DNA of 64,000 bases, taken from positions 4,318,501-4,382,500 of the forward strand of contig NZ_CP016809.1 in NCBI RefSeq assembly GCF_002741055.1, written 5' to 3'. The notes under the pieces were generated by a model that was not told the origin of the DNA, made no database searches, and saw only the letters and a program-made list of their open reading frames with translations. Below, one piece after another: positions 7,556-33,238 of the stretch. This stretch comes from Paenibacillus ihbetae (GTDB lineage Bacteria > Bacillota > Bacilli > Paenibacillales > Paenibacillaceae). The translations under genes and the position numbers were made by a program. How positions within the stretch are numbered: position 1 is the first letter of the stretch; each line of letters opens with the position of its first letter.

Positions 7556-7636
7556 ATGAATGGGCAAACGAACGAATGGATAAGCAAGTCGTTGTGTCAC
7601 CGGATGCCGGTTTCGCTTCGGCTATATGTTGAATGA
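7556..7636 (+). CDS. 26-residue small protein, translationally coupled to the first tail gene
   Basis: ATG 7556 is preceded by the very strong ribosome site GGAAGGAGGGGG (7541-7552). It encodes 26 codons, beginning MNGQTNEWISKSLCHRMP and ending LRLYVE. Its TGA (7634-7636) overlaps the ATG of the next gene (7633). The position suggests a leader cistron that sets translation of the following gene, which has no good ribosome site of its own. I recognise no family. Module 2 has no counterpart. Confidence 0.55.
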   Translation: MNGQTNEWISKSLCHRMPVSLRLYVE

Positions 7637-8487
7637 GAGAAGCGATTAAACAGGCCGTTATCCAATTGGTACCGGAGCTTGCGGGACGGATTTATGACGC
7701 GCATCCGCCAGAGAGCGCTGCAGATGATTTCTTTGCCGTTGTGCAGCTTGGCGAGGATGTATGGAAATCACCGTGGGCCGGCTACCGTCAGGTGATCAGG
7801 CTGAAGCTGTACGCGGGCGGGACTGCCGCTGCACGTCAGCTGGATTCGCAGGCGGAACGGCTCATACAGGGACTGCATCGGAAGCGGGTAACGGGTCCGG
7901 AAGACCATGCCTTCAAGCTTCATTATCTCGGCGTTCCGGAAGCGGATCAGCGGGATTTCAGCCTCGGCCGCACGCTCCGGGTGATCCGTTTCGGCGTTTA
8001 TGTCCCGGAGGCGTCAGCCAGCGGCCATGACTCCGGAAGCAACGGCGAACCGGATGAGTGGCTTTCCGCGCTGATCGCGTGGACCTCCAAGCAGCTCGGA
8101 AGCAGCTGGAGCGTGTACCGGACGGCATGGCCGGCGGACCGGGAAGATCATGCCGTGCTGTGGCGATTGTCGGGATGCGAGACGAAGATGGCCGGAGCCT
8201 CCGTCTACGAAATCAGCAAGAGCTTCACTGGTCATGTGGCGTCTACTTCTTCAGAGCATGAACAGTTAACGGCATTTTCGCTGGTGGAGTCGCTTGGCTC
8301 CGAGGCCCAGCTGCTGCTTGATCCCGAAGCTGGCCGGTATTTGTCCGTCGCCGGCATTTCCGGCGATTTGGAGGCCGATGCGATTTTGAACGGTCAGCTC
8401 AAGCTGACGCTCATCCAGCGGCAGATGCGTTCGGCGCAGGAGGCCGCAAGGATTCGCCGCGTTCATGTTCATCCGATTCTAAATTAA
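7633..8487 (+). CDS. Module 1 tail terminator/completion-like protein, apparently two-domain
   Basis: 284 residues at the head of module 1, where the tail terminator gene lies in contractile phages (XkdI/XkdJ region of PBSX). No confident family match. The two halves (about 1-135 and 148-284) look alike in layout, each with a start like a small-phage-protein alpha/beta fold, a strand-rich middle and a late QLKLTL- or TLRVIRF-type strand. This suggests a duplicated or fused terminator domain. The function is inferred from position: capping the sheath and tube at the distal end. Its start overlaps the 26-residue cistron. Confidence 0.6.
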   Translation: MREAIKQAVIQLVPELAGRIYDAHPPESAADDFFAVVQLGEDVWKSPWAGYRQVIRLKLYAGGTAAARQLDSQAERLIQGLHRKRVTGPEDHAFKLHYLGVPEADQRDFSLGRTLRVIRFGVYVPEASASGHDSGSNGEPDEWLSALIAWTSKQLGSSWSVYRTAWPADREDHAVLWRLSGCETKMAGASVYEISKSFTGHVASTSSEHEQLTAFSLVESLGSEAQLLLDPEAGRYLSVAGISGDLEADAILNGQLKLTLIQRQMRSAQEAARIRRVHVHPILN

Positions 8488-8499
8488 GGAGGGCTCGAG

Positions 8500-8709
8500 A
8501 TGGCGGTTAAGAAATCTATCAAGACGGAAGTGAACAGCGGAAGCGAGCCGCGGTACACATTGGCTGAGCTGACGGCTCATGCCAAGGAACGGTTCGGCGT
8601 CCGGCCTGAAGTCATTACCGGCGCTATGTACGGAGCAGCGGGCGAGCTGTTTACCGTAGCGGAGGTACAGGAACAAATCAAACATTTTATGAAAGCGAAG
8701 GTGGACTGA
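8500..8709 (+). CDS. Module 1 YqzN/YkzM-type small protein
   Basis: 69 residues with the YqzN/YkzM-like pattern: YTLAELTAHAKERFGV, then EVITGAMYG and FTVAEVQEQIKHFMKAKV. PBSX and skin elements of B. subtilis carry such a small gene directly before the sheath gene, as here. The ribosome site GGAGGG lies before ATG 8500. The function is unknown. Confidence 0.7.
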   Translation: MAVKKSIKTEVNSGSEPRYTLAELTAHAKERFGVRPEVITGAMYGAAGELFTVAEVQEQIKHFMKAKVD

Positions 8710-8711
8710 TT

Positions 8712-10181
8712 ATGGCGGGAGGAACATGGGATAGCACGAATAAACCGGTATTGCCGGGTTTGTATATGAATTTTAAAGCGGCGGCAGCCTCGGCGATTCA
8801 AGGCGGCGCACGTGGGACGGTCATCGTTCCCGTAAAGGCGAACTGGGGACCGGTACGCGAGTTTGTCGAGATCGGAAACGAGCATGCGATCGGCGAGTTA
8901 TTCTCCGCAGATCACGAGAATGGAGCAACCGCTTACCGGACGCTGTATCTGGCGCTGCTGGGCGGTCCGAAAAAGCTGCTCGCGTACCGTCTTGCGGACA
9001 GCACGGCTTCGGTGGCGTCCGTTACGCTGCAAGATGGCGAAGCGACGCCGTCCGATGTGCTGCAGCTTCAGGCTAAATACCCGGGCAGCCGCGGAAACGG
9101 CTTCTCGGTAACGATTCAGCCGTCGCTGATGGATCCGGCCGCTCGGGAGCTCCGCCTGTATGAAGGGGCCAAGCTGCTCGGCACCTATATTGGCGCCGAC
9201 GGTACGGCCGCATCGATCGCTGCGAAGGTGAATGAGGACGCGGAGAACGTCTGGGTGAGCGCGACCGTGCTCGGCGATGGCAGCGCAGTGCCTGCCGACG
9301 TCAACGGCGCAGCATTCACCGGCGGAACCAGCGGCAACAGCGGAATTGCCAATGCGGATTATCTAGAGTTTCAAGAAGCCGCCGAAGGCCGGCAGTTCGA
9401 TGTCGTGGCACTGGACGATGCGGCCGACATGTCCTTGCTTCAGAGCTTTGCCGCTTGGGTGAAGCGCCTCCGCCAGGAAGGTCGCGGAGTTATGGCCGTA
9501 TTCGGCGGAAGCGCGGCCGACGATGTGTCCAAGGATGCGCCGAAGACCGCAGCCGCCCGTTCGCTTGCGCTGAACCATGAAGGCGTTGTGAACGTCGGCA
9601 CCGGCGTGCGCTTGTCCGGCGTGGTTTACAGCTCTGCGCAGACAGCCGCCTATGTGGCTGGCTTGATTGCAGGTCAGCGGCTGAACCAGTCCGCTACATA
9701 TGCGGTGACGCCATTTGAGGATGTCACCCGCCGGTGGAGCCGCTCGGAACAGGAGCTTGCGGTTCAGAACGGTGTTTTCCTGCTTATCTTTGACGGACGC
9801 CAGGTGAAAGCTTTGCGGGGCATTAATACGCTCGTGAATCCGGCGGAGGGCCAGAACAATGCGTGGAAGAAGATTCGTTCGATCCGCGTCATGGATGCCA
9901 TTCATGCCGACCTGCAGGCGGCCGCTGAAGGCACGTACATCGGCAAGGTGAATAACACCGAGGAAGGCAGGCTAGCGCTGATCGGGGCCGTGAAGGAATA
10001 TTTGGGCCAGCTGTCGCTGAGCAACGTCATCGAGCCGGACGGCTATGACGTCATTCTGGACCCTGCCTACTACGGCGATTCCGCGGTGAAGCAGCCGGAG
10101 CCGGATCAAGTGTTCCTGCAATGGAACGTGAAGCTGACCGATGTGATGGAGCAGCTGTTTGGCACGTTTTACGTGCAATAA
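8712..10181 (+). CDS. xkdK: Module 1 contractile tail sheath protein (XkdK-like)
   Basis: 489 residues. It starts MAGGTWDSTNKPVLPGLYMN, the typical N-terminal strand of Bacillota sheath proteins that links subunits. A variable central region (about 95-210) follows, then a conserved C-terminal part: VALDDAADMSLLQSF, TYAVTPFEDVTRRWSRSEQE, IRSIRVMDAIHADLQ, YIGKVNNTEEGRLALIGAVKEYLG. It should form the contractile tube around the inner tail. Its paralogue in module 2 is about 50 residues shorter. Two bases separate it from the YqzN/YkzM-like gene. Confidence 0.95.
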   Translation: MAGGTWDSTNKPVLPGLYMNFKAAAASAIQGGARGTVIVPVKANWGPVREFVEIGNEHAIGELFSADHENGATAYRTLYLALLGGPKKLLAYRLADSTASVASVTLQDGEATPSDVLQLQAKYPGSRGNGFSVTIQPSLMDPAARELRLYEGAKLLGTYIGADGTAASIAAKVNEDAENVWVSATVLGDGSAVPADVNGAAFTGGTSGNSGIANADYLEFQEAAEGRQFDVVALDDAADMSLLQSFAAWVKRLRQEGRGVMAVFGGSAADDVSKDAPKTAAARSLALNHEGVVNVGTGVRLSGVVYSSAQTAAYVAGLIAGQRLNQSATYAVTPFEDVTRRWSRSEQELAVQNGVFLLIFDGRQVKALRGINTLVNPAEGQNNAWKKIRSIRVMDAIHADLQAAAEGTYIGKVNNTEEGRLALIGAVKEYLGQLSLSNVIEPDGYDVILDPAYYGDSAVKQPEPDQVFLQWNVKLTDVMEQLFGTFYVQ

Positions 10182-10324
10182 AGGCAGAAGTGGCTTACGG
10201 TAACGTGAAGAGCCGTATCGGCAAGGGCGCAGGGCGATTTAGGAACGAGTGGACCGGTTCGACTTTTGCGGCACCGTGAAGCCCGGTCAATCCAATCATT
10301 CAAAAATGCTGAGGAGGAATATCT

Positions 10325-10732
10325 ATGTTGGATGCTTCAAGAGTCATTATGGGAACGTATGGCCAGGCCTATATCGACGGGGTATGGCAGACGCATATTA
10401 ACAAGCTGGAAGCGAGCGTGGAGCTTGAGAAGCGCGAGCTGAAGCTGGTCGGCAACGACTGGACGGTGCATAAGAGCGGGAGCAAAAAAGGCACCGGCAC
10501 GATGAGCGGCTATAAGGTCACATCGGACATGATCGCCCGCGGCTTTACGAAGTTCGATATTATTTCCAAGCTGGACGACCCGGAATCGTACGGTCATGAG
10601 CGCGTGCGCCTGATCCGCTGCATGCCGGACAAGATCCAGCTCGCGAACTGGACTGCGGGTGAAGAAGTGCAGGAGGAGACATCGTTCACCTTTGAGGGGT
10701 ACGAGCTGCTCGATCCGATTTCGGCGGACTAA
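10325..10732 (+). CDS. xkdM: Module 1 tail tube protein (XkdM-like)
   Basis: 135 residues of the XkdM/core tail tube family. The features are KLEASVELEKRELKLVGNDW, then the HKSGSKKGTGTMSGYKVTSD strand pair and the C-terminal beta strand EETSFTFEGYELLDPI. Hexameric rings of this protein form the inner tube. It is preceded by GGAGGAA and a 143-bp gap from the sheath gene. It is followed by an intrinsic terminator, which may limit expression of the downstream genes relative to sheath and tube. Confidence 0.92.
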   Translation: MLDASRVIMGTYGQAYIDGVWQTHINKLEASVELEKRELKLVGNDWTVHKSGSKKGTGTMSGYKVTSDMIARGFTKFDIISKLDDPESYGHERVRLIRCMPDKIQLANWTAGEEVQEETSFTFEGYELLDPISAD

Positions 10733-10767
10733 TATTTCTATTATAAGAGTGAAAATAGCATAAATAT

Positions 10768-10820
10768 GCAGCATCGATCGATGATACATGCCGTGAATGT
10801 TGGGAGATGCTGCTCTTTTT
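10768..10820 (+). terminator. Intra-operon terminator after module 1 tube gene
   Basis: The arms GCAGCATC (10768-10775) and GATGCTGC (10806-10813) are followed by TCTTTTT. It sits between tube and chaperone genes, where partial termination would give more sheath and tube mRNA. Module 2 has only 27 bp at this junction and no such hairpin. Confidence 0.75.
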
Positions 10821-10908
10821 ATGGGAAAAGAGATGAATGGTTCACGCCTTGAATAACTGGTGGAGTGAACGATTGAAAGGCTAAAGAATCGGGAAAGGGG
10901 ACAACGAT

Positions 10909-11343
10909 GTGAGCTTGAACGAGCATTTGAGCGAAGAGCAAATTTTGGACAGCCTGTTCGAGGCGGCGGAGAAGCTGCCGGAGGAAACGGTGCGCATCAA
11001 GCGGCTCGATATGCAAATCGTGCTGCACGGTTTGACTTCGAGCAAGGTGGACAGCATCCGGGAGCGCTGCACGGTCCGCCGGAACGTGAAAGGCGCGGTG
11101 GATGAGAAGGTGGATACGGAGACGTTCAACGCGCTCCTGATTTCGGAAGCGACCGGCAGCTTGTCCGTCAAAGGGCTGACGCTGAACGGCTGGGGCGATC
11201 CGCGCATCACCAGCCGCTTGAAGCTGTCGGGCGGAGAGCAGGCGGTCCGCCGGATGCTGCTGGCCGGGGAGCTGGATGCCGTCGGCGATAAGGTGCTTGA
11301 GCTGTCCGGCTTCGGAGTCGAGATCGCCGACCTAAAAAACTGA
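10909..11343 (+). CDS. Module 1 tail assembly chaperone (gpG/XkdN-like), zero-frame product
   Basis: 144 residues, GTG start with AAAGGGG upstream. It lies between tube and tape-measure genes, the fixed position of tail assembly chaperones. Recognisable content is EHLSEEQILDSLFEAAEKLP, the middle GLTLNGWGDPRI, and the helical end VRRMLLAGELDAVGDKVLEL. The last codons are CTA AAA AAC TGA, containing the slippery heptamer A AAA AAC (11334-11340). Ribosomes slipping -1 would make the longer GT-type form ending at 11501. The two forms normally coat the tape measure before tube polymerisation. Confidence 0.85.
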   Translation: MSLNEHLSEEQILDSLFEAAEKLPEETVRIKRLDMQIVLHGLTSSKVDSIRERCTVRRNVKGAVDEKVDTETFNALLISEATGSLSVKGLTLNGWGDPRITSRLKLSGGEQAVRRMLLAGELDAVGDKVLELSGFGVEIADLKN

Positions 11344-11501
11344 TCGGCTCCGGGGGAATGACTACGATGCTGTACCACTTATGGGCCCGGCATCACCTTC
11401 TCCCCGGAGAGTTTTGGCGGCTGCCGCGAGGCGAGCGCTTATTGCTGCTCGCTTTTTCCCAGGAGGAAATGGACCGGCTCGCAGATCAGAGCGAAATGTG
11501 A
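11334..11501 (+). other. -1 programmed frameshift site and GT-type extension, module 1
   Basis: After slipping on A AAA AAC the -1 frame continues as LIGSGGMTTMLYHLWARHHL and on to FSQEEMDRLADQSEM, ending at TGA 11499-11501. It adds about 53 residues and stops 15 bases before the tape-measure start. Conserved -1 frameshifting in tail chaperone genes is established for many dsDNA phages; its use here is inferred from the heptamer and the open frame. Confidence 0.8.
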
Positions 11502-11515
11502 GGAGGTGAATCGAT

Positions 11516-13282: not shown

Positions 13283-13346
13283 CGGTTGGAGGCACTAGGC
13301 AGGCAAGAAACTTTAGCAGCATTTTAACGGAAAGGAGGGGCCGGCG

Positions 13347-13982
13347 ATGGAGTTTATTTTGAAGAACGGCAAGGGGAAGGAATTTATATTTCCGGTTAAT
13401 CCCGAGGAAGTGACCATTTCACGGCAAAAGGGCTTTGAAACGGCAACGATTCTAACCTTTGGCGAGTTTGATTTTCCGCAGGGAAACAAAATCAAGGAAA
13501 TATCCTTCTCTTCTTTTTTTCCAAAAGAGTTCGACGAATCATACTGCAAAGGAAGCCGGGATTCGCACCCGAAACCGCAAACGGCCATGAATACGCTCAA
13601 TGAGTTCCTGGTGTCCAAAACGCCGCTTCAGTTTATCATTACCGAAACCGCGGTCAATGTACCGGTGTTCGTGGTTTCCCATCAAACGACGTTTCGCGGC
13701 GGGGAGCAGGGGGATGTGTATTTCGACCTGACCCTCCGGACGTGGAGTGAGATGAAAGTAGCGAAAACCGCCGGCGCATCGGGCATCAACAAAAAGCCGC
13801 GGGCCGACATGAAGGAGAAAAGCAAGACTTACACGGTCAAGCCGGGGGACTCCCTCTCCAAAATCGCCAAGCTGGAGCTCGGGGACAGCTCGAAATGGAA
13901 CCAGATCTATACACTGAACCGGCAAGCGATCGGCAACAATCCAAATGCCATTAAACCCGGTCAAAAGCTGGTGCTGCCATGA
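13347..13982 (+). CDS. xkdP: Module 1 LysM baseplate protein (XkdP-like)
   Basis: 211 residues. The N-terminal domain starts MEFILKNGKGKEFIFPVNPE, the strand pattern of XkdP/gp53-type baseplate proteins, with SFFPKEFDESY and an interaction segment LQFIITETAVNVPVFV. The C-terminal LysM domain (about 160-211: KTYTVKPGDSLSKIAKLELG, ending NAIKPGQKLVLP) binds glycan or the neighbouring hub. Its ATGA end overlaps the hub gene. It is a clear homologue of the module 2 gene at 24329. Confidence 0.93.
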   Translation: MEFILKNGKGKEFIFPVNPEEVTISRQKGFETATILTFGEFDFPQGNKIKEISFSSFFPKEFDESYCKGSRDSHPKPQTAMNTLNEFLVSKTPLQFIITETAVNVPVFVVSHQTTFRGGEQGDVYFDLTLRTWSEMKVAKTAGASGINKKPRADMKEKSKTYTVKPGDSLSKIAKLELGDSSKWNQIYTLNRQAIGNNPNAIKPGQKLVLP

Positions 13983-14956
13983 GTTATAAAGTGATTTTGC
14001 AGGACAAATACGATTTGTCGCCTCTGGTGGAAGCTATCAACTTAAGGGATTCCCTGGAGCAGGTCGCCTATCAAGGCACGGTGAACCTGGTGGTGACGCC
14101 GGACTTGCCGCCGATTTCACCCGGGATGGCGATTCGGATCAGCGGTATTCCCTATGGGAAGAAGGACTATGTTCCCCTGCTCCATCCAGCTGTGGTTTGG
14201 GAAGCGGAGACTACGAACAATGGCGTGAAGCGGATGACGCTGACGATCTATGACCGGACGGTCTATCTGGATAAATCCGAGGATGAATATTTGTTCCCGG
14301 CAAAACAGACGGCAACGCAGCGCTTCAAAAAGTACGCGGCCGACTGGAACATCAAGATTGCCCATCTGCCCGATACCGAAAAACAGCTCGGACGCTCCGT
14401 TTACCGGACGCAGTCGATCTATGCCAGCATGTTCGCGGATTTGCGGGAAACGGCCAAGGCCGGCGGCAAGCTGTACCATCCGCGCATGGTCCCTTCGGGA
14501 CTTGAGCTGTATGAGCTGGGGTCAAACCGCGAGGTATACGTCTTAGAGACGTTAACCGATACGATTCAGCAGCGGACGCTCGAAGGGGCGGCGACCAAGG
14601 TCAAGGTGCTGGCAACATCGGCCAGCGAGACCGGGAAGGAGGTCCCTTCGAAGGTAATGGCCATCGAAGAGAAGGATATCGCCAAATACGGGCAGCTGCA
14701 GGCGATCATCCAGGACGATGAGGTGAAATCCGCCGCGGCCGCGCGTCAGTTGGTCCGAAGCAGACTCCGGGGAATCCGGGAGACGATCACGGTAAACGCT
14801 CCGGACATCAACACAATTCGCGCAGGAGATGCCGTCATCCTCGGTTCGTCGAAGCTGCTTGTGATTTCGGTCAGCCGGGAGCTCGGCAATCCGGGAAGCA
14901 TGATGCTGGAGCTTGGGAGCTATGACGATGTAAAAAGGAGGTTTTATCTTGAGTAA
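13979..14956 (+). CDS. xkdQ: Module 1 baseplate hub protein (XkdQ/gpD-like)
   Basis: 325 residues of the XkdQ family, functionally equivalent to T4 gp27 and P2 gpD hubs, which connect tube, tape measure and spike. Strand-rich segments include VNLVVTPDLPPISPGMAIRI and NGVKRMTLTIYDRTVYLDKS. The helical motif QTATQRFKKYAADWNIKIAH precedes the C-terminal TRAGDAVILGSSKLLVISVS-like strand (here NTIRAGDAVILGSSKLLVIS). It starts inside the LysM gene stop and overlaps the next gene by 8 bases. Confidence 0.88.
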   Translation: MSYKVILQDKYDLSPLVEAINLRDSLEQVAYQGTVNLVVTPDLPPISPGMAIRISGIPYGKKDYVPLLHPAVVWEAETTNNGVKRMTLTIYDRTVYLDKSEDEYLFPAKQTATQRFKKYAADWNIKIAHLPDTEKQLGRSVYRTQSIYASMFADLRETAKAGGKLYHPRMVPSGLELYELGSNREVYVLETLTDTIQQRTLEGAATKVKVLATSASETGKEVPSKVMAIEEKDIAKYGQLQAIIQDDEVKSAAAARQLVRSRLRGIRETITVNAPDINTIRAGDAVILGSSKLLVISVSRELGNPGSMMLELGSYDDVKRRFYLE

Positions 14957-15338
14957 AGACCCCTATGGACAATTGGCATCCTCCTTACTGTCTTCCTTCC
15001 ATAAGCAGACCCGCCAAGCGATCGGCGGAGTGGGAGCCGTACTCGGCACGATAACTTCGACCGGACTCAAGCTGGATGATTTCAAGCATGAGCTGCAAGA
15101 GTATATGGTTGCCGAGCTTCCGGGCCAATTGTCGCTGCCTCGCCGAACCGTAGAAGGAACGATCAGCGGAGATGGCGGCAAGACGGCAGTCTCTTTGGAA
15201 ATGGAGGAAACGGAAGTGGAGGAGGCACTCTGGAAGCTGAACCAAGGATTACAGCCCGGTGATCGAGTGCTGGCGGTACGCGTCAACGGCGGCCATGACG
15301 TCGTCGTGGTGTGCAAGGTGGTGAGCGGCCATGGCTAA
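14949..15338 (+). CDS. xkdR: Module 1 XkdR-like baseplate protein (DUF2577-type)
   Basis: 129 residues at the XkdR position between hub and XkdS. An N-terminal helical part (QLASSLLSSFHKQTRQA) leads into an OB-like strand region: GAVLGTITSTGLKLDDFKHE, then VAELPGQLSLP and the end LQPGDRVLAVRVNGGHDVVV. These strands correspond to those of the module 2 protein, although the sequence is diverged and longer. The likely role is a spike/hub adaptor. It overlaps both neighbours by 8 bases, so it belongs to a tightly coupled operon. Confidence 0.75.
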   Translation: MSKDPYGQLASSLLSSFHKQTRQAIGGVGAVLGTITSTGLKLDDFKHELQEYMVAELPGQLSLPRRTVEGTISGDGGKTAVSLEMEETEVEEALWKLNQGLQPGDRVLAVRVNGGHDVVVVCKVVSGHG

Positions 15339-15792
15339 TTTGTTCCCCGAAACGGAGGACATGATCTGGACCGATTCAGTTGGGCCTGAAACGTCCGAAG
15401 ATCACGGGGCCGTTTTTGGGCGGAGCTGGCGGTTTGATTTTGAAGCCGGAGAATTTGTCATGACCCCAACCCGAAAATTGGTTGCCGCGGATGAGAAGGA
15501 TGCATGGGTCGTCTGGTGTGAAAAAACGATTCGAACTCCCCGCTACCGGCATTTGATCTATTCTCGCGGCTATGGCAGTGAATTGGAGGAGCTGATCGGC
15601 AAGGGGCATGGCCGTCCGTTATTGGAGAGCGAAATCCGGCGGATGGTATCCGAAGCGCTGCTGGCGGATGCCCGCACGGAGAGCGTGGATCAATTCCAGT
15701 TTGAATGGGAAGGGGAAGCCTGCCGTTTTAGCTGCCGCATCACGAGCGTACGGGATGAGACGGAAATGATAGAAAGCGTGGTGATGACCTGA
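15331..15792 (+). CDS. xkdS: Module 1 XkdS-like baseplate wedge (DUF2634, gp25-like)
   Basis: 153 residues. The region SWRFDFEAGEFVMTPTRKLV then VWCEKTIRTPRYRHLIYSRG, YGSELEELIGKG and LLESEIRRMVSEALLAD is the XkdS/gp25-like pattern. Gp25-like wedges join baseplate to sheath and start its polymerisation. The start overlaps the XkdR-like gene, and the TGA shares its last base with the ATG of the baseplate J gene. Confidence 0.9.
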   Translation: MANLFPETEDMIWTDSVGPETSEDHGAVFGRSWRFDFEAGEFVMTPTRKLVAADEKDAWVVWCEKTIRTPRYRHLIYSRGYGSELEELIGKGHGRPLLESEIRRMVSEALLADARTESVDQFQFEWEGEACRFSCRITSVRDETEMIESVVMT

Positions 15793-17505: not shown

Positions 17506-17506
17506 A

Positions 17507-18883: not shown

Positions 18884-18889
18884 ATAACA

Positions 18890-19197
18890 GTGACTATGGA
18901 TATGTGCGTCATATACCAGAAAGCATCTGATCTGATTGGGCAAGTTCAGGAAGTCATTCTAGATTTGACGCAAAGATTGACGGTGGACGAGAAGAAAAAA
19001 CTGTACTACGACTACTACGATCCCGAAACAATTGAAAACAATATATCTGATTTACAACTGGTGAATGCTGATCTGACCAAACGATTGGAAGCCACATCTT
19101 TGAGAGTGCCAATGACAAGTCAACAATCTCTTCCCTGGAGGATACCGTGGGGGCACTATTCTTGGAAGTTGCTGTCCTGAACGGAGGTGCTGAGTAA
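18890..19197 (+). pseudogene. Module 1 fibre-accessory coiled-coil gene, frameshifted
   Basis: It starts at GTG 18890 or ATG 18896. The first 68 or so codons give a sensible helical protein (VIYQKASDLIGQVQEVILDL, then ISDLQLVNADLTKRLEATS). At the T-run 19099-19101 the frame then turns into an unlikely end and stops at 19180. Moving to the other frame at this point continues the coil as ESANDKSTISSLEDTVGALF and LEVAVLNGGAE, ending in TAA 19195-19197 just before the next start. One lost T explains this. It is the counterpart of the C-terminal part of the module 2 gene at 30920. It could be a real mutation or a sequencing error. Confidence 0.65.
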
Positions 19198-19462: not shown

Positions 19463-19900
19463 ATGCTAACCCAACACATCACGGATGCCCTGGCATCCCG
19501 ACTAAACAGCTCCTTCCCCGGCATCCCCCTGATTTCCAAAGAGGATGCCGTTCCTATACCAGAACCACCCTACCTCCATACCGAGCTGGCGCTAGCCGAA
19601 TTCGAGCCGATATCGCAACGACGATATGCGGCTCGTTTTCGTTTCAACATCTTGTACGTGCCTGCGGCGGGGCAGTCCGTGGCAGGGATCATGGACAAGA
19701 TGCTGGAGAGCTTGACGGAGCTCGAAGCGGGCGGCCGGCCATGCCGGGCGGCGGCGGTCGCATGGGAGCGGCCGGAGCGGGAAGAAGCTGCGGCGGAAGA
19801 AGGATGCTTCCGCGCAGAGTATGTTATTCAGGTATCTTCGGATTCAGCCGAATCCGTTCCAAAGATGCAAACCTTACAACAAGGAGGCGGTTTGAAATGA
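19463..19900 (+). CDS. Module 2 tail terminator protein (DUF6838-type)
   Basis: 145 residues opening module 2, AAAGGAG before ATG. It fits the small tail-terminator family: HITDALASRLNSSFPGIPLI, PPYLHTELALAEFEPISQRR, then the strand RFRFNILYVP and EYVIQVSS at the end. Terminators cap the completed tube and sheath. It is half the length of the module 1 protein in the same position. The stop overlaps the next start (ATGA). Confidence 0.7.
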   Translation: MLTQHITDALASRLNSSFPGIPLISKEDAVPIPEPPYLHTELALAEFEPISQRRYAARFRFNILYVPAAGQSVAGIMDKMLESLTELEAGGRPCRAAAVAWERPEREEAAAEEGCFRAEYVIQVSSDSAESVPKMQTLQQGGGLK

Positions 19901-20070: not shown

Positions 20071-21390
20071 ATGGCCGGAGGAACATGGACAACACCTAAC
20101 AAAGTAAGACCTGGGGTATACACCCAAATCACATCGCAGGAGCAGCCGATCGGACGCGTCGGCGAACGCGGGATCGCCGCGCTGGGACTCTCGCTTCCAT
20201 GGGGAGAGCCGCATAAGCTCCTCGCCATCAACCCAGGCAGCAATCTGCTGGAGGTATTGGGCTACGATATCACGTCGCCTCAGCTGCTGCTGGTAAAAGA
20301 AACGCTCAAGCGGGCAGGAACGCTTCTGCTGTACCGCCTGAACAGCGGCGTTCAAGCTGCAGGAGCCGTAGCAGGGCTTAGCGTGACCGCTCGGCATGGC
20401 GGGGAGCGCGGCAACGATATCCGCATCGTGATCGAGAACGCGGTCGATGATGCGGGCAAGTTCGTCGTCAGCACCCTGCTGAGCGGCAAAGCCGTGGACA
20501 AGCAGCTCGTTACGAACGCCGAGGAACTGCAGCCGAATCTGTATGTAACCTTCGCGCCGGATACCGGCGATTTGGCCGCAACGGCAGGATTTGCACTGAC
20601 AGGCGGCGCGAACGGGACCGTGACGAACCAAGATCATGTCGATTTTCTGGCTGCGCTTGAGGTTCAAGACTTCCAGACGGTGGGGTTGGCTTCGGACGAC
20701 GCTACCCTCAAATCGCTGTATACGGCGTTCATCAAGCGCTTGCGCGAGCAGGAAGGCAAGAAGGTGCAGGCCGTGCTTCCGGATTATCCGGCGGCGGATT
20801 ACGAAGGCATTATCAGCGTGAAAAACGGCGTTGTCCTCACCGACGGCACCATCGTGGACAAGATTAAGGCGGTTGCCTGGGTGACGGGCGCCACGGCTGC
20901 TGCAGCCGTTAATGAGTCTCTGACGTATGCGGCTTATGATGAAGCGGTTGATACCGATATTCGTCTGAGCCATACGGAAATTGAAGAAGCTTTGACGAAG
21001 GGCGAATTCCTGTTCAGCTACAGCGGCGGTAAAGCCGTGGTAGAGCAGGACATTAACAGCTTTACGTCGATCGAGCCGGCCAAGGCGCGCCATTTTTCCA
21101 AAAACCGGGTGGTCCGCGTTCTGGACGGCATTGCGAACGATCTGAAGCTGATCTTCGAGCAATCCTACATCGGCAAAGTCGACAACAATGTGGACGGCCG
21201 AACGCTGTTCTGGGCAGAGTGCGCGGCGTATTTCGCTTCCCTGCAGAATATCGGGGCGATTCAGAACTTCAACGCGAATGAGGATATTGTGGTGACGCCA
21301 GGTACCGAGGGTGACGTGCTGTTCGTCGATATCAAGGTTCAACCGGTCGATGCAATTGAAAAAGTATACATGAAAGTGAAGGTGGTCTAA
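20071..21390 (+). CDS. xkdK: Module 2 contractile tail sheath protein (XkdK-like)
   Basis: 439 residues. It opens MAGGTWTTPNKVRPGVYTQI, very like the module 1 sheath. It then has ERGIAALGLSLPWGEPHKLL, the variable domain, and the conserved C-terminal core (VAWVTGATAAAAVNESLTYA, NSFTSIEPAKARHFSKNRVV, RVLDGIANDLKLIFEQSYIG, then KVDNNVDGRTLFWAECAAYF). Subunits would form a second, separate contractile sheath. The divergence from sheath 1 makes mixed assembly unlikely, but this is inference. Confidence 0.95.
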   Translation: MAGGTWTTPNKVRPGVYTQITSQEQPIGRVGERGIAALGLSLPWGEPHKLLAINPGSNLLEVLGYDITSPQLLLVKETLKRAGTLLLYRLNSGVQAAGAVAGLSVTARHGGERGNDIRIVIENAVDDAGKFVVSTLLSGKAVDKQLVTNAEELQPNLYVTFAPDTGDLAATAGFALTGGANGTVTNQDHVDFLAALEVQDFQTVGLASDDATLKSLYTAFIKRLREQEGKKVQAVLPDYPAADYEGIISVKNGVVLTDGTIVDKIKAVAWVTGATAAAAVNESLTYAAYDEAVDTDIRLSHTEIEEALTKGEFLFSYSGGKAVVEQDINSFTSIEPAKARHFSKNRVVRVLDGIANDLKLIFEQSYIGKVDNNVDGRTLFWAECAAYFASLQNIGAIQNFNANEDIVVTPGTEGDVLFVDIKVQPVDAIEKVYMKVKVV

Positions 21391-21850: not shown

Positions 21851-21877
21851 TACGAACAAACAAGAGGAGGAAGGAAA

Positions 21878-22470: not shown

Positions 22471-22494
22471 ATTTTAGAAGAAGGGGGTGAGGGA

Positions 22495-24327: not shown

Positions 24328-24328
24328 C

Positions 24329-25045: not shown

Positions 25046-25058
25046 AGGAGGCGATGGC

Positions 25059-26024: not shown

Positions 26025-26027
26025 GTC

Positions 26028-26327
26028 ATGATGCTGGATATTATCAAAAAAGCGAGCCTGAGCGCCGTGGGAAGCACGAATCCCGTATCGGTGCTGTATG
26101 GCACGGTAACATCTGTGAATCCTCTGGAGGTGAACGTGGATCAGCGTTTCAGCCTGACGGAGGATTTTTTAGTGATCGGAGAGTCCATGACGGAGTACAA
26201 ACTGAATATTGACGGTCAGGACGTGCTGATCCGCAAAGGGCTTGAGCTCGGAGATACGGTGCTGCTGCTCCGTTATCAGGGCGGACAAACGTATCTTGTG
26301 CTGGATCGGCTGGTGAAGCCGTCATGA
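26028..26327 (+). CDS. xkdR: Module 2 XkdR-like protein (DUF2577)
   Basis: 99 residues with the DUF2577 pattern: AVGSTNPVSVLYGTVTSVNP, LEVNVDQRFSLTEDFLVIGE and the end LELGDTVLLLRYQGGQTYLV. An OB-like small baseplate protein. It starts three bases after the hub stop and its end overlaps the XkdS gene. Confidence 0.9.
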   Translation: MMLDIIKKASLSAVGSTNPVSVLYGTVTSVNPLEVNVDQRFSLTEDFLVIGESMTEYKLNIDGQDVLIRKGLELGDTVLLLRYQGGQTYLVLDRLVKPS

Positions 26328-28330: not shown

Positions 28331-30907
28331 ATGACGAATCCGGTAACACCGAATATCGGGTTGAACAAAATCGATCGGACGTCGCCGGCAACGACGTATT
28401 TCGATCTGGAGAAATATATCGACCAGAACGCGGACACGGTCGACCGCTTCGCCGGTGAAGCGAGCCAGGCCATCGAGGCGCTGCAGCAGCGTCTGGATAC
28501 CGAGGAGCGCCGGGAGGTCGTGCTGCAGCCGGGGCTGCAGATCGTGAATGAGGAGCGCAGCGCACCCTTTTCGCTGAGCGGGATTAAGGGGCGGACGTTG
28601 GTGAATTTGTTGGGGCGGGATGGTAACTGTGAAAATGTTAGCAGATTTACTCCATGGCAAGCGACTCTAGCAGCCGAAACAGTTAATAAGACACAAGGCA
28701 ATCAATCGTTAAAGATAACGACAACAGCAACGCCCGGCGGATCAGGTGCATTAACGGGGTTCCCGGTTAAAGAGGGGAGTTATTATCTTATTGTTGCAGA
28801 GGTCAGGTTGGGATCCGGGACGTCGATTGGGGCGTACCTTAACGGTTTGGCTTACAGCAAAGGTAATACGAACTCTACCGACACCACAAAATTTAAAACC
28901 GTTTGGAAAGCGTATAGCGTGAGTGCTGCCGCTACGGTTTACGCAGTGGGGGAAGTCGTCGGACCTTCTGGAAGCGTAGGTTATGTGGACGCCATTCGTG
29001 TCTATGAGATCTCCGCAATTGATTACGCCGCACTCGACGGCATGACGCCGGAACAAATCGCCGCCAAGTATCCATACGTCGATAGCCTACAGCCTGTCCG
29101 TAATCCGTATGTGCTCCGGTACGGGGAGAATCTGCTACCGCCGTTTTATGAGTGGGCGCGCGGTAGCCAAACAAATGTTATTTCACCGTACGCATTAAAT
29201 TTGAATGCCATTGAAGCATTTCATATAACGACTTGTGAAGTTCCTTTCGTAATAGGTCAATCTTACACCTTAACTGCTACATTCTCAGGTGATGTAGGGG
29301 GATATATTCATGTTAGAGGATATGACTCTTCGGGCGCGATTAATAGTCTCGATATAACCACTTCACAGTCAAAAATAGGGATAAACGTCCTTAATTACAC
29401 TGTACCTGAAGGCACAGTTTCTATCGTTGTTATATTTACTAATACGAAGGTCGGAGTATTTAATGTTAGTAATCCTATGCTTACGCTCGGCTCCGAAACC
29501 AAACCGTTCAAACCACGCGAAGACTCCATGCTCGCGATGCAAACGGACTTATACGCTGATCCGGTTAATGGCGCTAATGCTGACGAAGTGTTCGAGAAGG
29601 ATGGGCAGTATTTTAAGCTGGCGAAGTGGAAGGGAAACGCATTAGATGGTTCATTGTCGTATGTAGTTCTTAACAACTATACCGGGTTTAAACGTGTGGC
29701 TGTTCCGGTCGGACAACTGCCTTTACCGCTAACCTTACAAAAGTATTGGGCAACTAAGTATCAAGGAAGTTTACTGAGTCTGATTGATACGTCGACGAGG
29801 GTAGATGCAGTGGACTATTCAGATACTCATGGCTGGTTGTTGTCTATTTCCAACACAGACAGCGGTTGGGGCGACAACTACACGCCGACAGCCGACGAGA
29901 TTAAGGCGTATTTTATAGGCTGGAAGATGTATGACGCCGCAGCTAATGCATCTTCTGTTTATAACGGTTCTGGCGGTAAGGCATGGGTAAATCTAGCCAA
30001 GTTCGTCAAAGGAGATCATTCGGAATACACAACAACGATACCTACCGTTCCAGCAGTAGAGTACACGCCATATCAACTCGTATACCAACTCGCAACGCCA
30101 ACGGTCGAACCTATCGTTTCCGAAGGCATGCTGACGTTTAACGAAGGCGATAACCAGATCGAAGTTGGAACGGGAATAGTGGTACGGGAGAGTGTGAAAC
30201 CTGTCGTTTGGTCGAATGGTTACACGTGGATCAACGGGAGAACTATTCCTAGCTATCCTCTGAAAAATAGGCCGAGTAAAATACTAACTATTTACAAAAA
30301 CGCGAGGCAAAATACCGGATGGCGTTATGAACCCGTAGATTCGGGATTTCAAGATATACACGGACTCGTGCAAGCAAGGATTGAAAATAGTCTCTTTGAT
30401 ACATCCGCTGCCTATTCTGCCACGTACCTAATGATGGACACGTCGCCAATCGTCCCATTCACCGGATCGTACGCAGCAAACGAAAAGATGATGCTCCAAG
30501 AGCTGACGGACACCGTGCAGCAGAATGCGACCGCTGTATCCGTGCTGATGAATAAGAAGGCGGATAAGGACTCAGCAGGATGGATTACGCCGACGTTGCT
30601 GAATGGAGCGATAAATGTTACAGGACTCCCCCCTGTTCGCATCATGAAGGATTCAATGGGATACGTACACATACAGGGGGCTATAAAACCAATGAATATG
30701 TCAGTCAGCACCGTGTTTAAACTGCCAAAAGGGTATCGCCCAGGTGTGCTGAATGTACTTATCGTAGCTGGGTTGCCAACGGATAGCGGCGATGTATACA
30801 CGCGCATTAACATCGATCCCAATGGTGACGTTGTGTTCGTGCCGACCAATAATCCTAATCATTGGGTCTCGTTCTTTAACATACCGCCGTTTCTCGCTGA
30901 ACAATAG
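28331..30907 (+). CDS. Module 2 large tail fibre / receptor-binding protein
   Basis: 858 residues, nearly twice fibre 1. The N-terminal attachment part is TPNIGLNKIDRTSPATTYFD, then a helical stretch (ASQAIEALQQRLDTEERREV). From about residue 100 there are successive beta-rich domains that look like carbohydrate-binding modules: SLKITTTATPGGSGALTGFP with YYLIVAEVRLGSGTSIGAYL, and a second with SYTLTATFSGDVGGYIHVRG. The C-terminal part (about 740-858) resembles a phage fibre tip (GAINVTGLPPVRIMKDSMGY, then VHIQGAIKPM). DNA from about 28620 to 30480 is clearly AT-richer than the baseplate genes. No catalytic motif for glycan cleavage was recognised. Confidence 0.85.
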   Translation: MTNPVTPNIGLNKIDRTSPATTYFDLEKYIDQNADTVDRFAGEASQAIEALQQRLDTEERREVVLQPGLQIVNEERSAPFSLSGIKGRTLVNLLGRDGNCENVSRFTPWQATLAAETVNKTQGNQSLKITTTATPGGSGALTGFPVKEGSYYLIVAEVRLGSGTSIGAYLNGLAYSKGNTNSTDTTKFKTVWKAYSVSAAATVYAVGEVVGPSGSVGYVDAIRVYEISAIDYAALDGMTPEQIAAKYPYVDSLQPVRNPYVLRYGENLLPPFYEWARGSQTNVISPYALNLNAIEAFHITTCEVPFVIGQSYTLTATFSGDVGGYIHVRGYDSSGAINSLDITTSQSKIGINVLNYTVPEGTVSIVVIFTNTKVGVFNVSNPMLTLGSETKPFKPREDSMLAMQTDLYADPVNGANADEVFEKDGQYFKLAKWKGNALDGSLSYVVLNNYTGFKRVAVPVGQLPLPLTLQKYWATKYQGSLLSLIDTSTRVDAVDYSDTHGWLLSISNTDSGWGDNYTPTADEIKAYFIGWKMYDAAANASSVYNGSGGKAWVNLAKFVKGDHSEYTTTIPTVPAVEYTPYQLVYQLATPTVEPIVSEGMLTFNEGDNQIEVGTGIVVRESVKPVVWSNGYTWINGRTIPSYPLKNRPSKILTIYKNARQNTGWRYEPVDSGFQDIHGLVQARIENSLFDTSAAYSATYLMMDTSPIVPFTGSYAANEKMMLQELTDTVQQNATAVSVLMNKKADKDSAGWITPTLLNGAINVTGLPPVRIMKDSMGYVHIQGAIKPMNMSVSTVFKLPKGYRPGVLNVLIVAGLPTDSGDVYTRINIDPNGDVVFVPTNNPNHWVSFFNIPPFLAEQ

Positions 30908-30919
30908 AGGGGGGATTAT

Positions 30920-31531
30920 ATGAAAGCCGTACCTAAGGTAAATATTGACGGCCTCTATCTGGAGGACGAACTCGTGGACGATACCTTTACCGGTGTCGTC
31001 CCTTTTTATTCCCCGGTTCTACCCATTTCCAATGGACCGGAGCATCTAGATACAGTTATCAATATCTCGAATGCTAGCACCGGAGATGAACTAGTCGACC
31101 GGGAACCGGCAGGCTATATCGTCGGCATCCCGGTTCCACCCGGTCTCTTCCACCCGCGCTTCGATCTTGAGGCGTGGCGGGAATACGAGGACTCGATCCT
31201 AGCAGCGGAAGCCGCCTATCAAGAGGCGATGAGGGCATGGAACTCCACTCCAGAGGAGGAGCGGGGCAACCGGCCGGTCTTGAACATTCCACCGATGCCC
31301 GCCCTATGGATCGAGGGGCTAACCCCCGAGGAGATTGAGCGAATCACTGCACCCCAGCCGCAAGCCCCAAGCGAGTTGGACTGGCTGGGCACAGAGCTGG
31401 TAGCACGGGAATTGGAGATGCTGGAGATTCGCCGGCAAAACGAAACACTCGGCGCGCAAGTCGTAGGGCTGGAGCTACGTCTGCTGTCGCTTGAAGGCAG
31501 TCCATCCGAAGGAGGGGAAACGTATGTTTGA
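30920..31531 (+). CDS. Module 2 fibre-accessory protein (XkdW-position)
   Basis: 203 residues, GAGGGGGG upstream. The first half (VDDTFTGVVPFYSPVLPISN, YIVGIPVPPGLFHPRFDLEA) resembles short tail-fibre assembly or accessory proteins encoded after fibres. The C-terminal about 45 residues form a coil (LGTELVARELEMLEIRRQNE, then LGAQVVGLELRLLSLEG) equivalent to the broken module 1 gene. It overlaps the XkdX gene. Probably needed for fibre folding or attachment; this is inference from position. Confidence 0.65.
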   Translation: MKAVPKVNIDGLYLEDELVDDTFTGVVPFYSPVLPISNGPEHLDTVINISNASTGDELVDREPAGYIVGIPVPPGLFHPRFDLEAWREYEDSILAAEAAYQEAMRAWNSTPEEERGNRPVLNIPPMPALWIEGLTPEEIERITAPQPQAPSELDWLGTELVARELEMLEIRRQNETLGAQVVGLELRLLSLEGSPSEGGETYV

Positions 31532-31661
31532 GAATGATTTTGAACGCTTGAAATATTACTACGAAAAAAGGTGGGCGCAAAAGCCCCAGCTTCGACAGTA
31601 CGTAGCGTTTGGCGTCATCACGCCAGAGGAGTACGAAGCCATTACAGGGGAGGCTTTTTGA
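31524..31661 (+). CDS. xkdX: Module 2 XkdX-family small protein
   Basis: 45 residues: FENDFERLKYYYEKRWAQKP, then LRQYVAFGVITPEEYEAITG. The YYxKxW...VxxGxITPEEYxxITG pattern is the XkdX family, found after fibre genes in Bacillota phages and PBSX; function unknown. GGAGGGGAAA lies upstream of ATG 31524, and the gene overlaps the accessory gene by 8 bases. Confidence 0.85.
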   Translation: MFENDFERLKYYYEKRWAQKPQLRQYVAFGVITPEEYEAITGEAF

Positions 31662-31739: not shown

Positions 31740-31792
31740 TTGTCCCCGGATTTTAACCTTGCTTAAAAGTCTTCACAAAAATCCGGGGACAA
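31740..31792. repeat. 15-bp perfect inverted repeat
   Basis: TTGTCCCCGGATTTT (31740-31754) and AAAATCCGGGGACAA (31778-31792) with a 23-base loop. The gap between XkdX and holin (31662-32013) has no gene. This inverted repeat, the tandem repeat after it and a terminator-like hairpin fill it. It may be a folded RNA or a small dispersed repeat element. Confidence 0.8.
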
Positions 31793-31800
31793 CAGCGATC

Positions 31801-31930
31801 GGAGGCAGGATCCGCATGCGCAGTGCTGTTACGCCAACAAAGGCGAGGCAGGATCCGCATTCGAAGTGCTGATACGCCAACAAAAGGTGGAGGCAGACTC
31901 CGCAAGCGCAGTCCTGATAACCAATCAATT
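31801..31930. repeat. Three tandem copies of a 43-45 bp repeat
   Basis: GAGGCAG starts at 31802, 31845 and 31890. Copies read GAGGCAGGATCCGCATGCGC, GAGGCAGGATCCGCATTCGA and GAGGCAGACTCCGCAAGCGC, each followed by AGTGCTG or AGTCCTG and, in the first two, ACGCCAACAAA. Copy 3 is the most diverged. Not coding. Confidence 0.8.
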
Positions 31931-31955
31931 AGCTTCTTAGAGCCACATTCCTTTC

Positions 31956-31979
31956 AAGCCCTCGGCCGCCGAGGGCTTT
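31956..31979 (+). terminator. GC-rich hairpin just before the lysis genes
   Basis: The arms AAGCCCTCGG (31956-31965) and CCGAGGGCTT (31969-31978) with a 3-base loop are followed by TC. The stem is strong but the T tract is very short. It could be a weak terminator that lowers lysis-gene expression from the structural transcript. Confidence 0.6.
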
Positions 31980-32013
31980 CTCATCCCTTCAACGATAAAA
32001 AGGAGGAACGATT

Positions 32014-32466
32014 ATGTATGAGCACATCGGTCAACTGTTTAAGATGCTGGTGGCTGGGACGGGTGCCGTAACCGGGTATGTCTGGGGCGGCTGGTCCCTG
32101 CCGCTGCATTTGCTGCTGTGGTTCGTGGTGATCGACTGGCTGACCGGCTGGGGGGCGGCCTGGATGAATGGCGAGCTGCGGAGCCGGAAGGGCTACGCCG
32201 GCATCGCCCGGAAAATCACGATTTTTCTCATCATCGCGTTAATGCACCTGGTTGACCGGGTGCTCGGCGAGATGAACTATTTTCAAAACACGGTCATCTT
32301 CTTCTACCTGGCCAATGAGCTGCTGTCCATTCTTGAGAATGTTGGGCGGATGGGCGTACCGATTCCGCAATCGCTGCGTAATGTGGTACAGGTCTTCCAG
32401 ATCAAATCGGAGGAAGGTGAGAAGAAAACCGCTGGGAAAGGAGACAAAAAGGATGAAGCCTCATGA
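32014..32466 (+). CDS. Phage holin (toxin secretion/phage lysis family)
   Basis: 150 residues. Membrane segments: about 9-27 (KMLVAGTGAVTGYVWGGW), 30-45 (LHLLLWFVVIDWLTGW), 68-85 (ITIFLIIALMHLVDRVL) and 92-110 (QNTVIFFYLANELLSILENV). The basic C-terminal tail ends EKKTAGKGDKKDEAS. The DWLTG motif and general layout fit the holin 4 family. It overlaps the endolysin gene by 14 bases. It is the only holin in the locus, so it should release particles of both modules. Confidence 0.93.
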   Translation: MYEHIGQLFKMLVAGTGAVTGYVWGGWSLPLHLLLWFVVIDWLTGWGAAWMNGELRSRKGYAGIARKITIFLIIALMHLVDRVLGEMNYFQNTVIFFYLANELLSILENVGRMGVPIPQSLRNVVQVFQIKSEEGEKKTAGKGDKKDEAS

Positions 32467-33238
32467 GTTTATCGCCAAGCTGGCGCCGATCGCGACCGAG
32501 GACATGAGAAAATACGGCGTACCCGCTTCGTTGACGCTGGCGCAAGCGATTTTGGAGTCAAACTGGGGGACGAGCGGGTTGACGCAAAAGGCCAATAATC
32601 TGTTCGGCATCAAAGGAACGGGTCCGGCCGGCAGCGTAACGATGCCGACAACGGAGTACCGGGGGAACACGCCGTATACCGTTCAGGCCCATTTCCGCAA
32701 GTACAACGGCTGGCATGAATCGGTGGACGACCACACGAGACTCATTTTGAACGGAACGAGAGACAAGCCGAAGCGCTATCACGGAGTTTTATGGGCGGAC
32801 TACAAGACGGCGGCCACGGAGATCTGGAAAGGCGGCTATGCGACAGATCCCAAGTATCCGCAGAAGCTGATCTCGATCATGGAGCAATATTCGCTCCACC
32901 GTTATGATCTGCCTAGTCCCGAGGAGGAGGAACGCATGAAAATCGAACAGTTGACGGCCGAGCTGCAGAAAACCCAAGGGGAACTGCGGCAGCTCGCTAA
33001 CCAATACGCTTCGGCTTTGAACACGCTGAGCGAGCAGGGGAACACAATCAAGCAGTTGCAAGCTAGGCTGAAGAAGCTGGAAGCCCGGCAGCCTGATCAG
33101 GTTCCGGCGTGGGCAGAGGATGCCGTGAAGGCGGCCAAGAAGGCGGCAGCGCTGAAAGATCCCGACGGCAGCTACGATTTTTACCGGATGCTCACAATCC
33201 TGCACCGCATGGGGATATTTAGCGATCCGAAGAAGTGA
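32453..33238 (+). CDS. Endolysin: N-acetylglucosaminidase (GH73-type)
   Basis: 261 residues from ATG 32453. The glucosaminidase domain (about 1-150) shows LTLAQAILESNWGTSGLTQK with the catalytic Glu in AILESNWG, NLFGIKG, YRGNTPYTVQAHFRKYNGWH and GGYATDPKYPQKLISIMEQY. A coiled coil (about 160-210) and a small C-terminal domain (WAEDAVKAAKKAAALKDPDG, then YDFYRMLTILHRMGIF), of a type seen in Bacillota phage lysins, follow. It cleaves peptidoglycan glycan strands at lysis. Overlap with holin marks one lysis cassette. Confidence 0.93.
   Translation: MKPHEFIAKLAPIATEDMRKYGVPASLTLAQAILESNWGTSGLTQKANNLFGIKGTGPAGSVTMPTTEYRGNTPYTVQAHFRKYNGWHESVDDHTRLILNGTRDKPKRYHGVLWADYKTAATEIWKGGYATDPKYPQKLISIMEQYSLHRYDLPSPEEEERMKIEQLTAELQKTQGELRQLANQYASALNTLSEQGNTIKQLQARLKKLEARQPDQVPAWAEDAVKAAKKAAALKDPDGSYDFYRMLTILHRMGIFSDPKK

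What the first reader, a model, noticed from the sequence alone, without database searches (positions are those of the whole stretch)
7556..33238. Two complete contractile-tail modules in tandem, sharing one lysis cassette
The sequence shows two full sets of PBSX-like tail genes in the same order (terminator, YqzN/YkzM, sheath, tube, chaperone with frameshift, tape measure, LysM, hub, XkdR, XkdS, baseplate J, XkdU, fibre, accessory, XkdX) at 7.6-19.3 kb and 19.5-31.7 kb, then a single holin-endolysin pair. Known contractile tailocins usually encode one particle per locus; pyocin loci can pair an R-type and an F-type, but two R-type sets are not something I know as described. The copies are strongly diverged, so this is an old duplication or a merger of two tail lineages. 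Induced cells may release two particles with different fibres (458 and 858 residues), widening the target range.
Basis: partly seen in the sequence, partly recalled or inferred. Interest (0 to 1): 0.9.

Follow-up and report, generated by a model that had tools for sequence, protein, structure and literature searches.

The report
Double contractile tailocin locus in Paenibacillus
A Paenibacillus-type soil bacterium carries, side by side and followed by one set of cell-bursting genes, two complete and very different gene sets for phage-tail-like particles that probably kill rival bacteria, a pairing shared by a number of related species and so far described mainly from Pseudomonas.

Summary
In detail: two complete XkdX-type contractile-tail gene sets (A 7633-19180, B 19463-31661) stand head to tail, followed by one holin and one endolysin. 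They are not a duplication: A follows the tail module of the Mu-like Bacillus phage BalMu-1, B and the endolysin follow Brevibacillus phage Jimmer1. Each set has its own terminator, sheath, tube, frameshift chaperone, tape measure, hub, sheath initiator, wedge proteins and fibre. Two sheaths close together occur in 13 of 100 genomes of the genus, A and B hubs close together in 28 of 75 of a sister genus. Core genes of both sets have low dN/dS, fibres diverge. Best explanation: two separate R-type tailocins released by one lysis event. New variant of a known kind; no particle was observed.

The parts
3215..3640 (-). ImmA/IrrE-type metalloprotease (Peptidase_M78), likely anti-repressor
   Evidence: PF06114 69.2 bits; near full-length homologue in 40 of 72 loci examined (window included), a partial one at a stretch end in 1 more
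3720..4157 (-). Cro/C1-type HTH repressor
   Evidence: PF13560/PF01381; a homologue divergent from ArpU in the loci that show ArpU and reach that far
4435..4944 (+). ArpU-family late-gene activator
   Evidence: TIGR01637 69.3 bits, cut-off 43.1
7468..7489 (+). terminator-like hairpin in the leader
   Evidence: similar sequence in most of the 15 aligned loci, not in G010
7556..7636 (+). 26-codon leader ORF, stop overlaps the A terminator start
   Evidence: sequence read directly
7633..8487 (+). module A tail terminator-position protein (284 aa)
   Evidence: phrog_2146; 31% to BalMu-1 at the same place
8500..8709 (+). module A YqzN/YkzM-like small protein
8712..10181 (+). module A sheath
   Evidence: PF04984, PF17482, PF17481
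10325..10732 (+). module A tube
   Evidence: PF09393 168.9 bits
10909..11343 (+). module A assembly chaperone; A AAA AAC slippery site at its end, 53-codon -1 extension
   Evidence: PF08890
11516..13282 (+). module A tape measure (588 aa)
   Evidence: position; weak PHROGs matches only
13347..13982 (+). module A LysM protein (XkdP)
   Evidence: PF01476
13979..14956 (+). module A hub (XkdQ)
   Evidence: PF24032; 49% to BalMu-1 XkdQ
14949..15338 (+). module A XkdR-position protein
   Evidence: phrog_2403; 32% to BalMu-1
15331..15792 (+). module A sheath initiator (XkdS)
   Evidence: PF10934
15792..16946 (+). module A baseplate J (XkdT)
   Evidence: PF04865
16939..17505 (+). module A XkdU
   Evidence: PF10076
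17489..18883 (+). module A fibre
   Evidence: position; phrog_28171/38337; fast divergence
18890..19180 (+). module A small fibre-end ORF
   Evidence: ORF; no family above cut-off
19463..19900 (+). module B tail terminator
   Evidence: PF20765
19891..20070 (+). module B YqzN/YkzM-like small protein
20071..21390 (+). module B sheath
   Evidence: PF04984, PF17482, PF22671, PF17481
21392..21850 (+). module B tube
   Evidence: PF09393
21878..22300 (+). module B assembly chaperone; A AAA AAC slippery site, 57-codon -1 extension
   Evidence: PF08890
22495..24327 (+). module B tape measure (610 aa)
   Evidence: phrog_1068 tape measure 284 bits
24329..25045 (+). module B LysM protein
   Evidence: PF01476
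25059..26024 (+). module B hub
   Evidence: PF24032 410 bits; 52% to Jimmer1
26028..26327 (+). module B XkdR (DUF2577)
   Evidence: PF10844
26324..26737 (+). module B sheath initiator
   Evidence: PF10934
26730..27788 (+). module B baseplate J
   Evidence: PF04865
27785..28330 (+). module B XkdU
   Evidence: PF10076
28331..30907 (+). module B fibre (858 aa)
   Evidence: phrog_13022, phrog_2929 tail fiber
30920..31531 (+). module B fibre-accessory protein
   Evidence: phrog_22769
31524..31661 (+). module B XkdX
   Evidence: PF09693 57.1 bits
32014..32466 (+). shared holin
   Evidence: PF05105
32459..33238 (+). shared endolysin (glucosaminidase); ORF listed from 32315
   Evidence: PF01832; 51% to the Jimmer1 endolysin

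Best explanation
The locus encodes two separate R-type (contractile) tailocins. A repressor, its likely ImmA-type protease and an ArpU activator probably switch the tail genes on; A and B are read in one direction, probably mostly from the start before A; each module assembles its own tail with its own chaperone, tape measure, hub and fibre; the sheaths, tubes and hubs are probably too unlike each other to mix; a single holin and endolysin then lyse the cell and set both particle types free, each aimed by its own fibre. Shown: gene content, order, integrity in the window, conservation, low dN/dS, two phage origins, one lysis pair. Inferred: control by the upstream genes, joint transcription, assembly of two particles, killing of related bacteria.
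For: Complete sets by Pfam/PHROGs; only two sheath matches in the genome, both here. A matches BalMu-1 in 11 of 12 core genes and B matches Jimmer1 in 11 of 12, each better than the other phage where both match, so each module is a tail kit of its own. A-B identity in the window is 27% sheath, 35% tube, marginal for the hub, none for terminator and tape measure. The slippery site AAAAAAC is kept in both modules of all 13 g1 pairs, the window included. Layout in 13 of 100 and 28 of 75 genomes. dN/dS window vs G070 (A/B): sheath 0.07/0.05, tube 0.02/0.01, hub 0.03/0.04, J 0.06/0.06; dgt 0.03. In a tree of 81 XkdU sequences the A copies form one group with no B copy inside. No terminator-like site between A and B. 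No capsid, portal, terminase or integrase family in 42 ORFs between 799 and 37369 scanned with Pfam.
Against: No particle, transcript or killing was measured. A weak promoter-like match (19277-19304, 9 of 12) lies between A and B (20 such matches found in the region, 12.7 expected), so B may have its own start. The LexA-like box found before the A terminator in 23 of 47 loci is absent in the window, G030 and G010, so SOS control of this copy is open. Some relatives look damaged: G061 A tape measure 343 aa, G232 A sheath and B hub and J shortened, G231 B sheath and hub shortened; hits split in two in G041 (hub), G065 (A LysM), G011 (J) and G061 (A XkdU); G062 has lost A. Some of this may be assembly error. 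G096 has no ImmA or ArpU hit in about 8 kb held upstream, and 10 of 10 sister-genus pairs show none in the 1.6-4.2 kb held upstream.
Confidence: 0.75

Rival explanations
1. Only one module is used; the other is a silent or conditional spare, kept by recombination or chance.
For: Single-module loci beside ArpU are common (A alone in 11, B alone in 15 of the g1 loci mapped), so one module suffices; G062 shows loss of A; some pairs look damaged.
Against: Core genes of both modules have low dN/dS in several species pairs; both keep the frameshift site and tape measures of limited length range; the pair is seen in 41 genomes.
Confidence: 0.12
2. The two sets build one composite particle (two sheath types in one tail, as in Afp/PVC-type injection systems, which are recalled to carry several sheath proteins).
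For: One direction of reading, one lysis pair.
Against: Each module has its own terminator, hub, sheath initiator, J and tape measure, which a composite tail would not need; single-module relatives exist; sheath and tube diverge to 27% and 35%. No AAA+ ATPase family above cut-off among the ORFs of the locus (one sub-threshold AAA_lid_9 match in the endolysin).
Confidence: 0.05
3. The locus is the decaying remnant of two neighbouring prophages with no present function.
For: Both modules have phage relatives; some relatives carry broken genes.
Against: No head, packaging or integration family found; intact frames in the window; low dN/dS on core genes and fast change in fibres; ArpU side shared by many species.
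Confidence: 0.05

Closest known systems
Pseudomonas protegens CHA0 R-tailocin cluster (tailocins #1 and #2), PMC7815802 (passages)
   Same: Two complete, differently arranged R-type sets in one chromosomal hotspot, each with its own tape measure, lysis genes in the same cluster; authors infer two independent prophage origins
   Different: Gram-negative; between mutS and cinA/recA; PrtR regulator; holin, two endolysins and spanins; here HTH/ImmA/ArpU genes and one holin plus one glucosaminidase
Pseudomonas chlororaphis double tailocin cluster as described in the review PMC12090994 (passages)
   [quoted passage not shown] this one is Gram-positive and from other phage lineages
PBSX-like particle of Bacillus pumilus 15.1 (PMC8347963, passages)
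   Same: Related tail genes in a similar order and a sigma-like positive regulator; seen after mitomycin C
   Different: Has terminase, portal and capsid genes and packages host DNA; none of these families was found here
Clostridium beijerinckii strains with two R-type tailocin genomes (PMC10538166, passages)
   Same: Bacillota with two contractile tailocins in one genome
   Different: Described as tailocin genomes of a resolvase and an integrase type with very similar structural cassettes; the passages seen do not describe a tandem of two unlike sets with one lysis pair
Bacillus phage BalMu-1 and Brevibacillus phage Jimmer1
   Same: Tail relatives of A and of B, gene by gene
   Different: Phage genomes with head genes; BalMu-1 tape measure 1441 codons against 588 in A

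Membership tests
R-type tailocin | complete contractile tail set (sheath, tube, tape measure, baseplate, fibre) | tested here: met
   met twice
R-type tailocin | no capsid, portal, terminase, integrase | tested here: met
   no such family in 42 ORFs between 799 and 37369 scanned with Pfam; not all very small ORFs were scanned
R-type tailocin | lysis cassette and phage-type regulator in the cluster | tested here: met
   holin, endolysin; ArpU, HTH repressor, ImmA
R-type tailocin | conservation at one chromosomal site with variable fibres | tested here: met
   the dgt side was seen in 11 g1 loci only, other stretches mostly end too early
R-type tailocin | DNA-free particles that kill related bacteria | not testable with these tools
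   needs induction, EM and killing assays
Double R-tailocin cluster (Pseudomonas type) | two complete unlike sets with one lysis cassette in one locus | tested here: met
Double R-tailocin cluster (Pseudomonas type) | mutS-cinA site and PrtR-type control | tested here: not met
   neighbours are ArpU/HTH/ImmA upstream and dgt downstream; it works like, but is not a member of, that lineage
PBSX element | capsid and terminase genes, packaging of host DNA | tested here: not met
   no such family found; packaging itself not testable
Afp/PVC-type eCIS | AAA+ ATPase in the particle locus (recalled) | tested here: not met
   no AAA+ family above cut-off among the ORFs scanned in the locus

The most novel reading that the evidence does not exclude
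Because the same long fibre family sits on A baseplates in some species and on B baseplates in others, fibres may cross-load between the two tails of one cell, so that one lysis event releases up to four particle types from two tails and two fibres.
Probability: 0.15. Interest if true: 0.65.

Novelty: new variant of a known kind. Interest (0 to 1): 0.5.

Why it matters
[quoted passage not shown] Related species hold A alone, B alone, A-B or B-A, so gain, loss and pairing of weapons can be followed, and the question why many tailocin producers keep only one particle becomes testable in ordinary soil strains.

Tried and rejected
Tandem duplication: rejected, since each module is closer to a different phage and several gene pairs are not alignable. 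XkdU exchange between modules: tested with a tree of 81 sequences (XkdU ORFs not within 2.2 kb of a J start were left out); the A copies form one group without B copies. A LexA-like site at 3200 in the window: it lies just downstream of the ImmA gene, and 30 matches in the window against a shuffle mean of 18.6 make single matches weak; not used. One ancient pairing versus repeated pairing: the FastTree trees (no support values shown) put g1 and g5 pairs in separate clades with single-module loci between them; this fits losses or independent pairing, left open. The family-wide sheath and hub listings are cut off by the tool, so pairs outside the two genera may have been missed; I saw none in the listed rows. 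In one search the query named Xre was out of frame; its numbers were dropped and the repressor is judged. In one search, values with dS near zero or saturated were not used, and the B_yqzN row (an over-long ORF) was set aside. Ten mapped g1 loci without ArpU beside them (G016a, G007b, three contigs' worth of G050, G059a and others) lie elsewhere in their genomes and were not counted as single-module loci of this site. A structure prediction for the A terminator protein did not finish.
Full report
What is there. Pfam and PHROGs scans of the ORFs show two tail gene sets on the plus strand with the same order: terminator, small YqzN-like protein, sheath, tube, chaperone, tape measure, LysM protein, hub, XkdR-position protein, sheath initiator, baseplate J, XkdU, fibre. 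Set A spans 7633-19180, set B 19463-31661, then holin 32014-32466 and endolysin to 33238, then dgt at 33775. The assembly is one 6.59 Mb contig with only these two PF04984 sheath matches. Both chaperone genes end in the -1 slippery heptamer A AAA AAC directly before the stop and continue for 53 (A) and 57 (B) codons in the -1 frame. The site is kept in both modules of all 13 g1 pairs; at the called ORF ends it was not found in A of G020 and of G232.

Upstream lie a Cro/C1-type repressor (3720-4157, minus), an IrrE/ImmA-type metalloprotease (3215-3640, minus; PF06114, 69 bits) and an ArpU-family activator (4435-4944; TIGR01637, 69 bits, cut-off 43). A near full-length ImmA homologue with ArpU beside it was found in 40 of 72 loci mapped, and a partial one at a stretch end in one more. 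That ImmA proteases act on such repressors in other mobile elements is recalled, not tested.

Two lineages, not a duplication. In the window A and B share 27% (sheath), 35% (tube), 39% (J) and 49% (XkdU) identity; the hub gives only a marginal match (E 0.035) and the terminator and tape measure none. By tblastn, A matches BalMu-1 in 11 of 12 core genes (not the tape measure) and B matches Jimmer1 in 11 of 12 (the terminator only weakly, 28 bits; B XkdU matches BalMu-1 instead, 70 bits); wherever both phages match, the own one scores higher. The shared endolysin is 51% identical to that of Jimmer1, so it goes with the B lineage. The A tape measure has 588 codons against 1441 in BalMu-1 and 1429 in phiCD27; B has 610 against 677 in Jimmer1.

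Conservation. Of 100 genomes of the genus (g1, the window's own included), 80 have a sheath match and 13 have two sheaths within 20 kb on one strand: 11 in A-B order with both modules like the window's, G061 in B-A order, and G007 with A followed by a divergent B-like set. In the sister genus g5, 65 of 75 genomes have an A hub, 32 a B hub and 28 have A followed by B within 13 kb on one strand; in G182, G231 and G232 the B hub match is cut short. Together 41 genomes, within the 394 of the family searched, whose match lists are truncated. In g1 the ArpU side is shared by 12 of 13 pairs (not G096), by 11 A-only loci and by 15 B-only loci, G062 included. The dgt gene was seen downstream in 11 g1 loci (nine pairs, A-only G020 and G072), 62 to 12202 bp after the endolysin; most other stretches end too early, but A-only G003 (12 kb held downstream) and B-only G045 (18 kb held) show none, so the dgt side is not shown for every kind of locus. 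Of ten g5 pairs mapped, dgt was hit downstream in 6, and no ArpU or ImmA in the 1.6-4.2 kb held upstream. Trees of four concatenated proteins, 45 A and 47 B loci, place the A modules of 12 g1 pairs in one clade, with A-only G020 inside, and their B modules in one clade next to B-only G062; G007 falls elsewhere in both; g5 pairs form their own clades, with single-module g5 loci among them. G062 keeps the first 86 codons of the A terminator before a lone B module, which shows loss of A. G187 and G188 have a holin between A and B and a lysin after B (in G187 a GH25 family protein), an arrangement that a merger could leave.

Selection. Between the window and G070, dN/dS (A/B) is 0.07/0.05 for sheath, 0.02/0.01 for tube, 0.03/0.04 for hub and 0.06/0.06 for J; dgt gives 0.03. 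Terminators are looser (0.22/0.25), and the A tape measure is 0.21 here and 0.27-0.32 between G070 and G065 or G069. Against the very close G030 some small or nearly identical genes give higher values (B terminator 0.49, B XkdU 0.45 and A LysM 0.58 with dS of 0.09, 0.03 and 0.007). Fibres have dN of 0.48 or more in the three comparisons with the window. Tape measures are 44-72% identical to the window's in most pairs (97-98% in G030), yet A stays at 577-596 aa in 10 g1 pairs (G061 with a 343-aa ORF and divergent G007, 762 aa, left out) and B at 565-663 aa (G007 with 848 left out). A core under purifying selection with a changing fibre fits weapons in use.

Fibres. In G015, G203 and G239 the A module carries a fibre related over 98-100% of the query to the window's B fibre (39-43% identity), and in G096, G062, G050, G034, G005, G060 and G185 a B module carries a fibre whose best match is the A fibre, mostly over a short stretch. 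Fibre cassettes therefore seem to move between the two kinds of baseplate over evolutionary time, though XkdU does not. This is the ground for the bold reading that fibres may also cross-load within a cell.

Control. In 23 of 47 loci with an A terminator a LexA-like box (recalled consensus CGAACRNRYGTTYG, up to 2 mismatches) lies 240-340 bp before that gene, against 370 of 14176 control windows of 100 bp in the same loci (2.6%). The loci are related, so the 23 are not independent. The window, G030 and G010 lack it, as do all ten g5 pairs and A-only G178, G230, G236 and G250; g5 G203 has a match. Before B, within 500 bp, a match was seen in 3 of 30 loci only. No terminator-like site lies between A and B, but a weak promoter-like match does (19277-19304), so joint transcription is likely, not shown. 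A hairpin at 7468-7489 precedes the operon.

Literature. I saw passages of PMC7815802, section 5 and passages of PMC8319346 (Pseudomonas clusters that appear to encode 1-4 particles), passages of PMC12090994, PMC10538166, PMC8347963, PMC9406221, PMC10598620, PMC9854653, PMC12923769, PMC10931772 and PMC12961389. PMC12923769 describes a fibre of a Paenibacillus extracellular contractile injection system, which is another kind of system. Ten searches of an open-access library, of which I saw listings and abstract starts, showed no report of a Paenibacillus tailocin or of a tandem R-type pair in Bacillota; most subscription papers are not held and most listed papers were not opened, so this is weak evidence of absence.

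Verdict. The kind (two R-type tailocins with one lysis cassette) is known from Pseudomonas; the Gram-positive setting, the phage lineages, the control genes and the spread are new as far as I could search. No step of particle assembly or killing has been shown.

Noticed in passing
5267-7303: TetR-type regulator and alpha/beta hydrolase between ArpU and the first tail gene; among the loci also seen at this place in G010, other loci have a shorter gap or other inserts.
   Followed up: partly
4200-4400: Several TTGCC-NNNN-GGCAA-like inverted repeats between the repressor and ArpU, candidate operator sites; seen by eye only.
   Followed up: no
7400-7500: A block (GGTGTAAGATT...ATCGG.AATGAAG) and a following terminator-like hairpin are conserved before the operon in most of the 15 aligned loci; could be a late promoter with attenuation.
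   Followed up: partly
31790-31930: Imperfect short repeats with GGCAGGATCCGC-like units between XkdX and the holin, also present in G030.
   Followed up: no
L079 (G062) 6399-8876: Truncated A terminator (86 codons) followed by a 629-codon ORF before a lone B module: remnant of a lost A set.
   Followed up: partly
L123-L124 (G187): Holin between A and B and GH25 lysin after B, a split lysis pair.
   Followed up: partly
L044-L045 (G061): Reversed order B-A, with LexA-like boxes before both modules and a short A tape measure ORF.
   Followed up: partly
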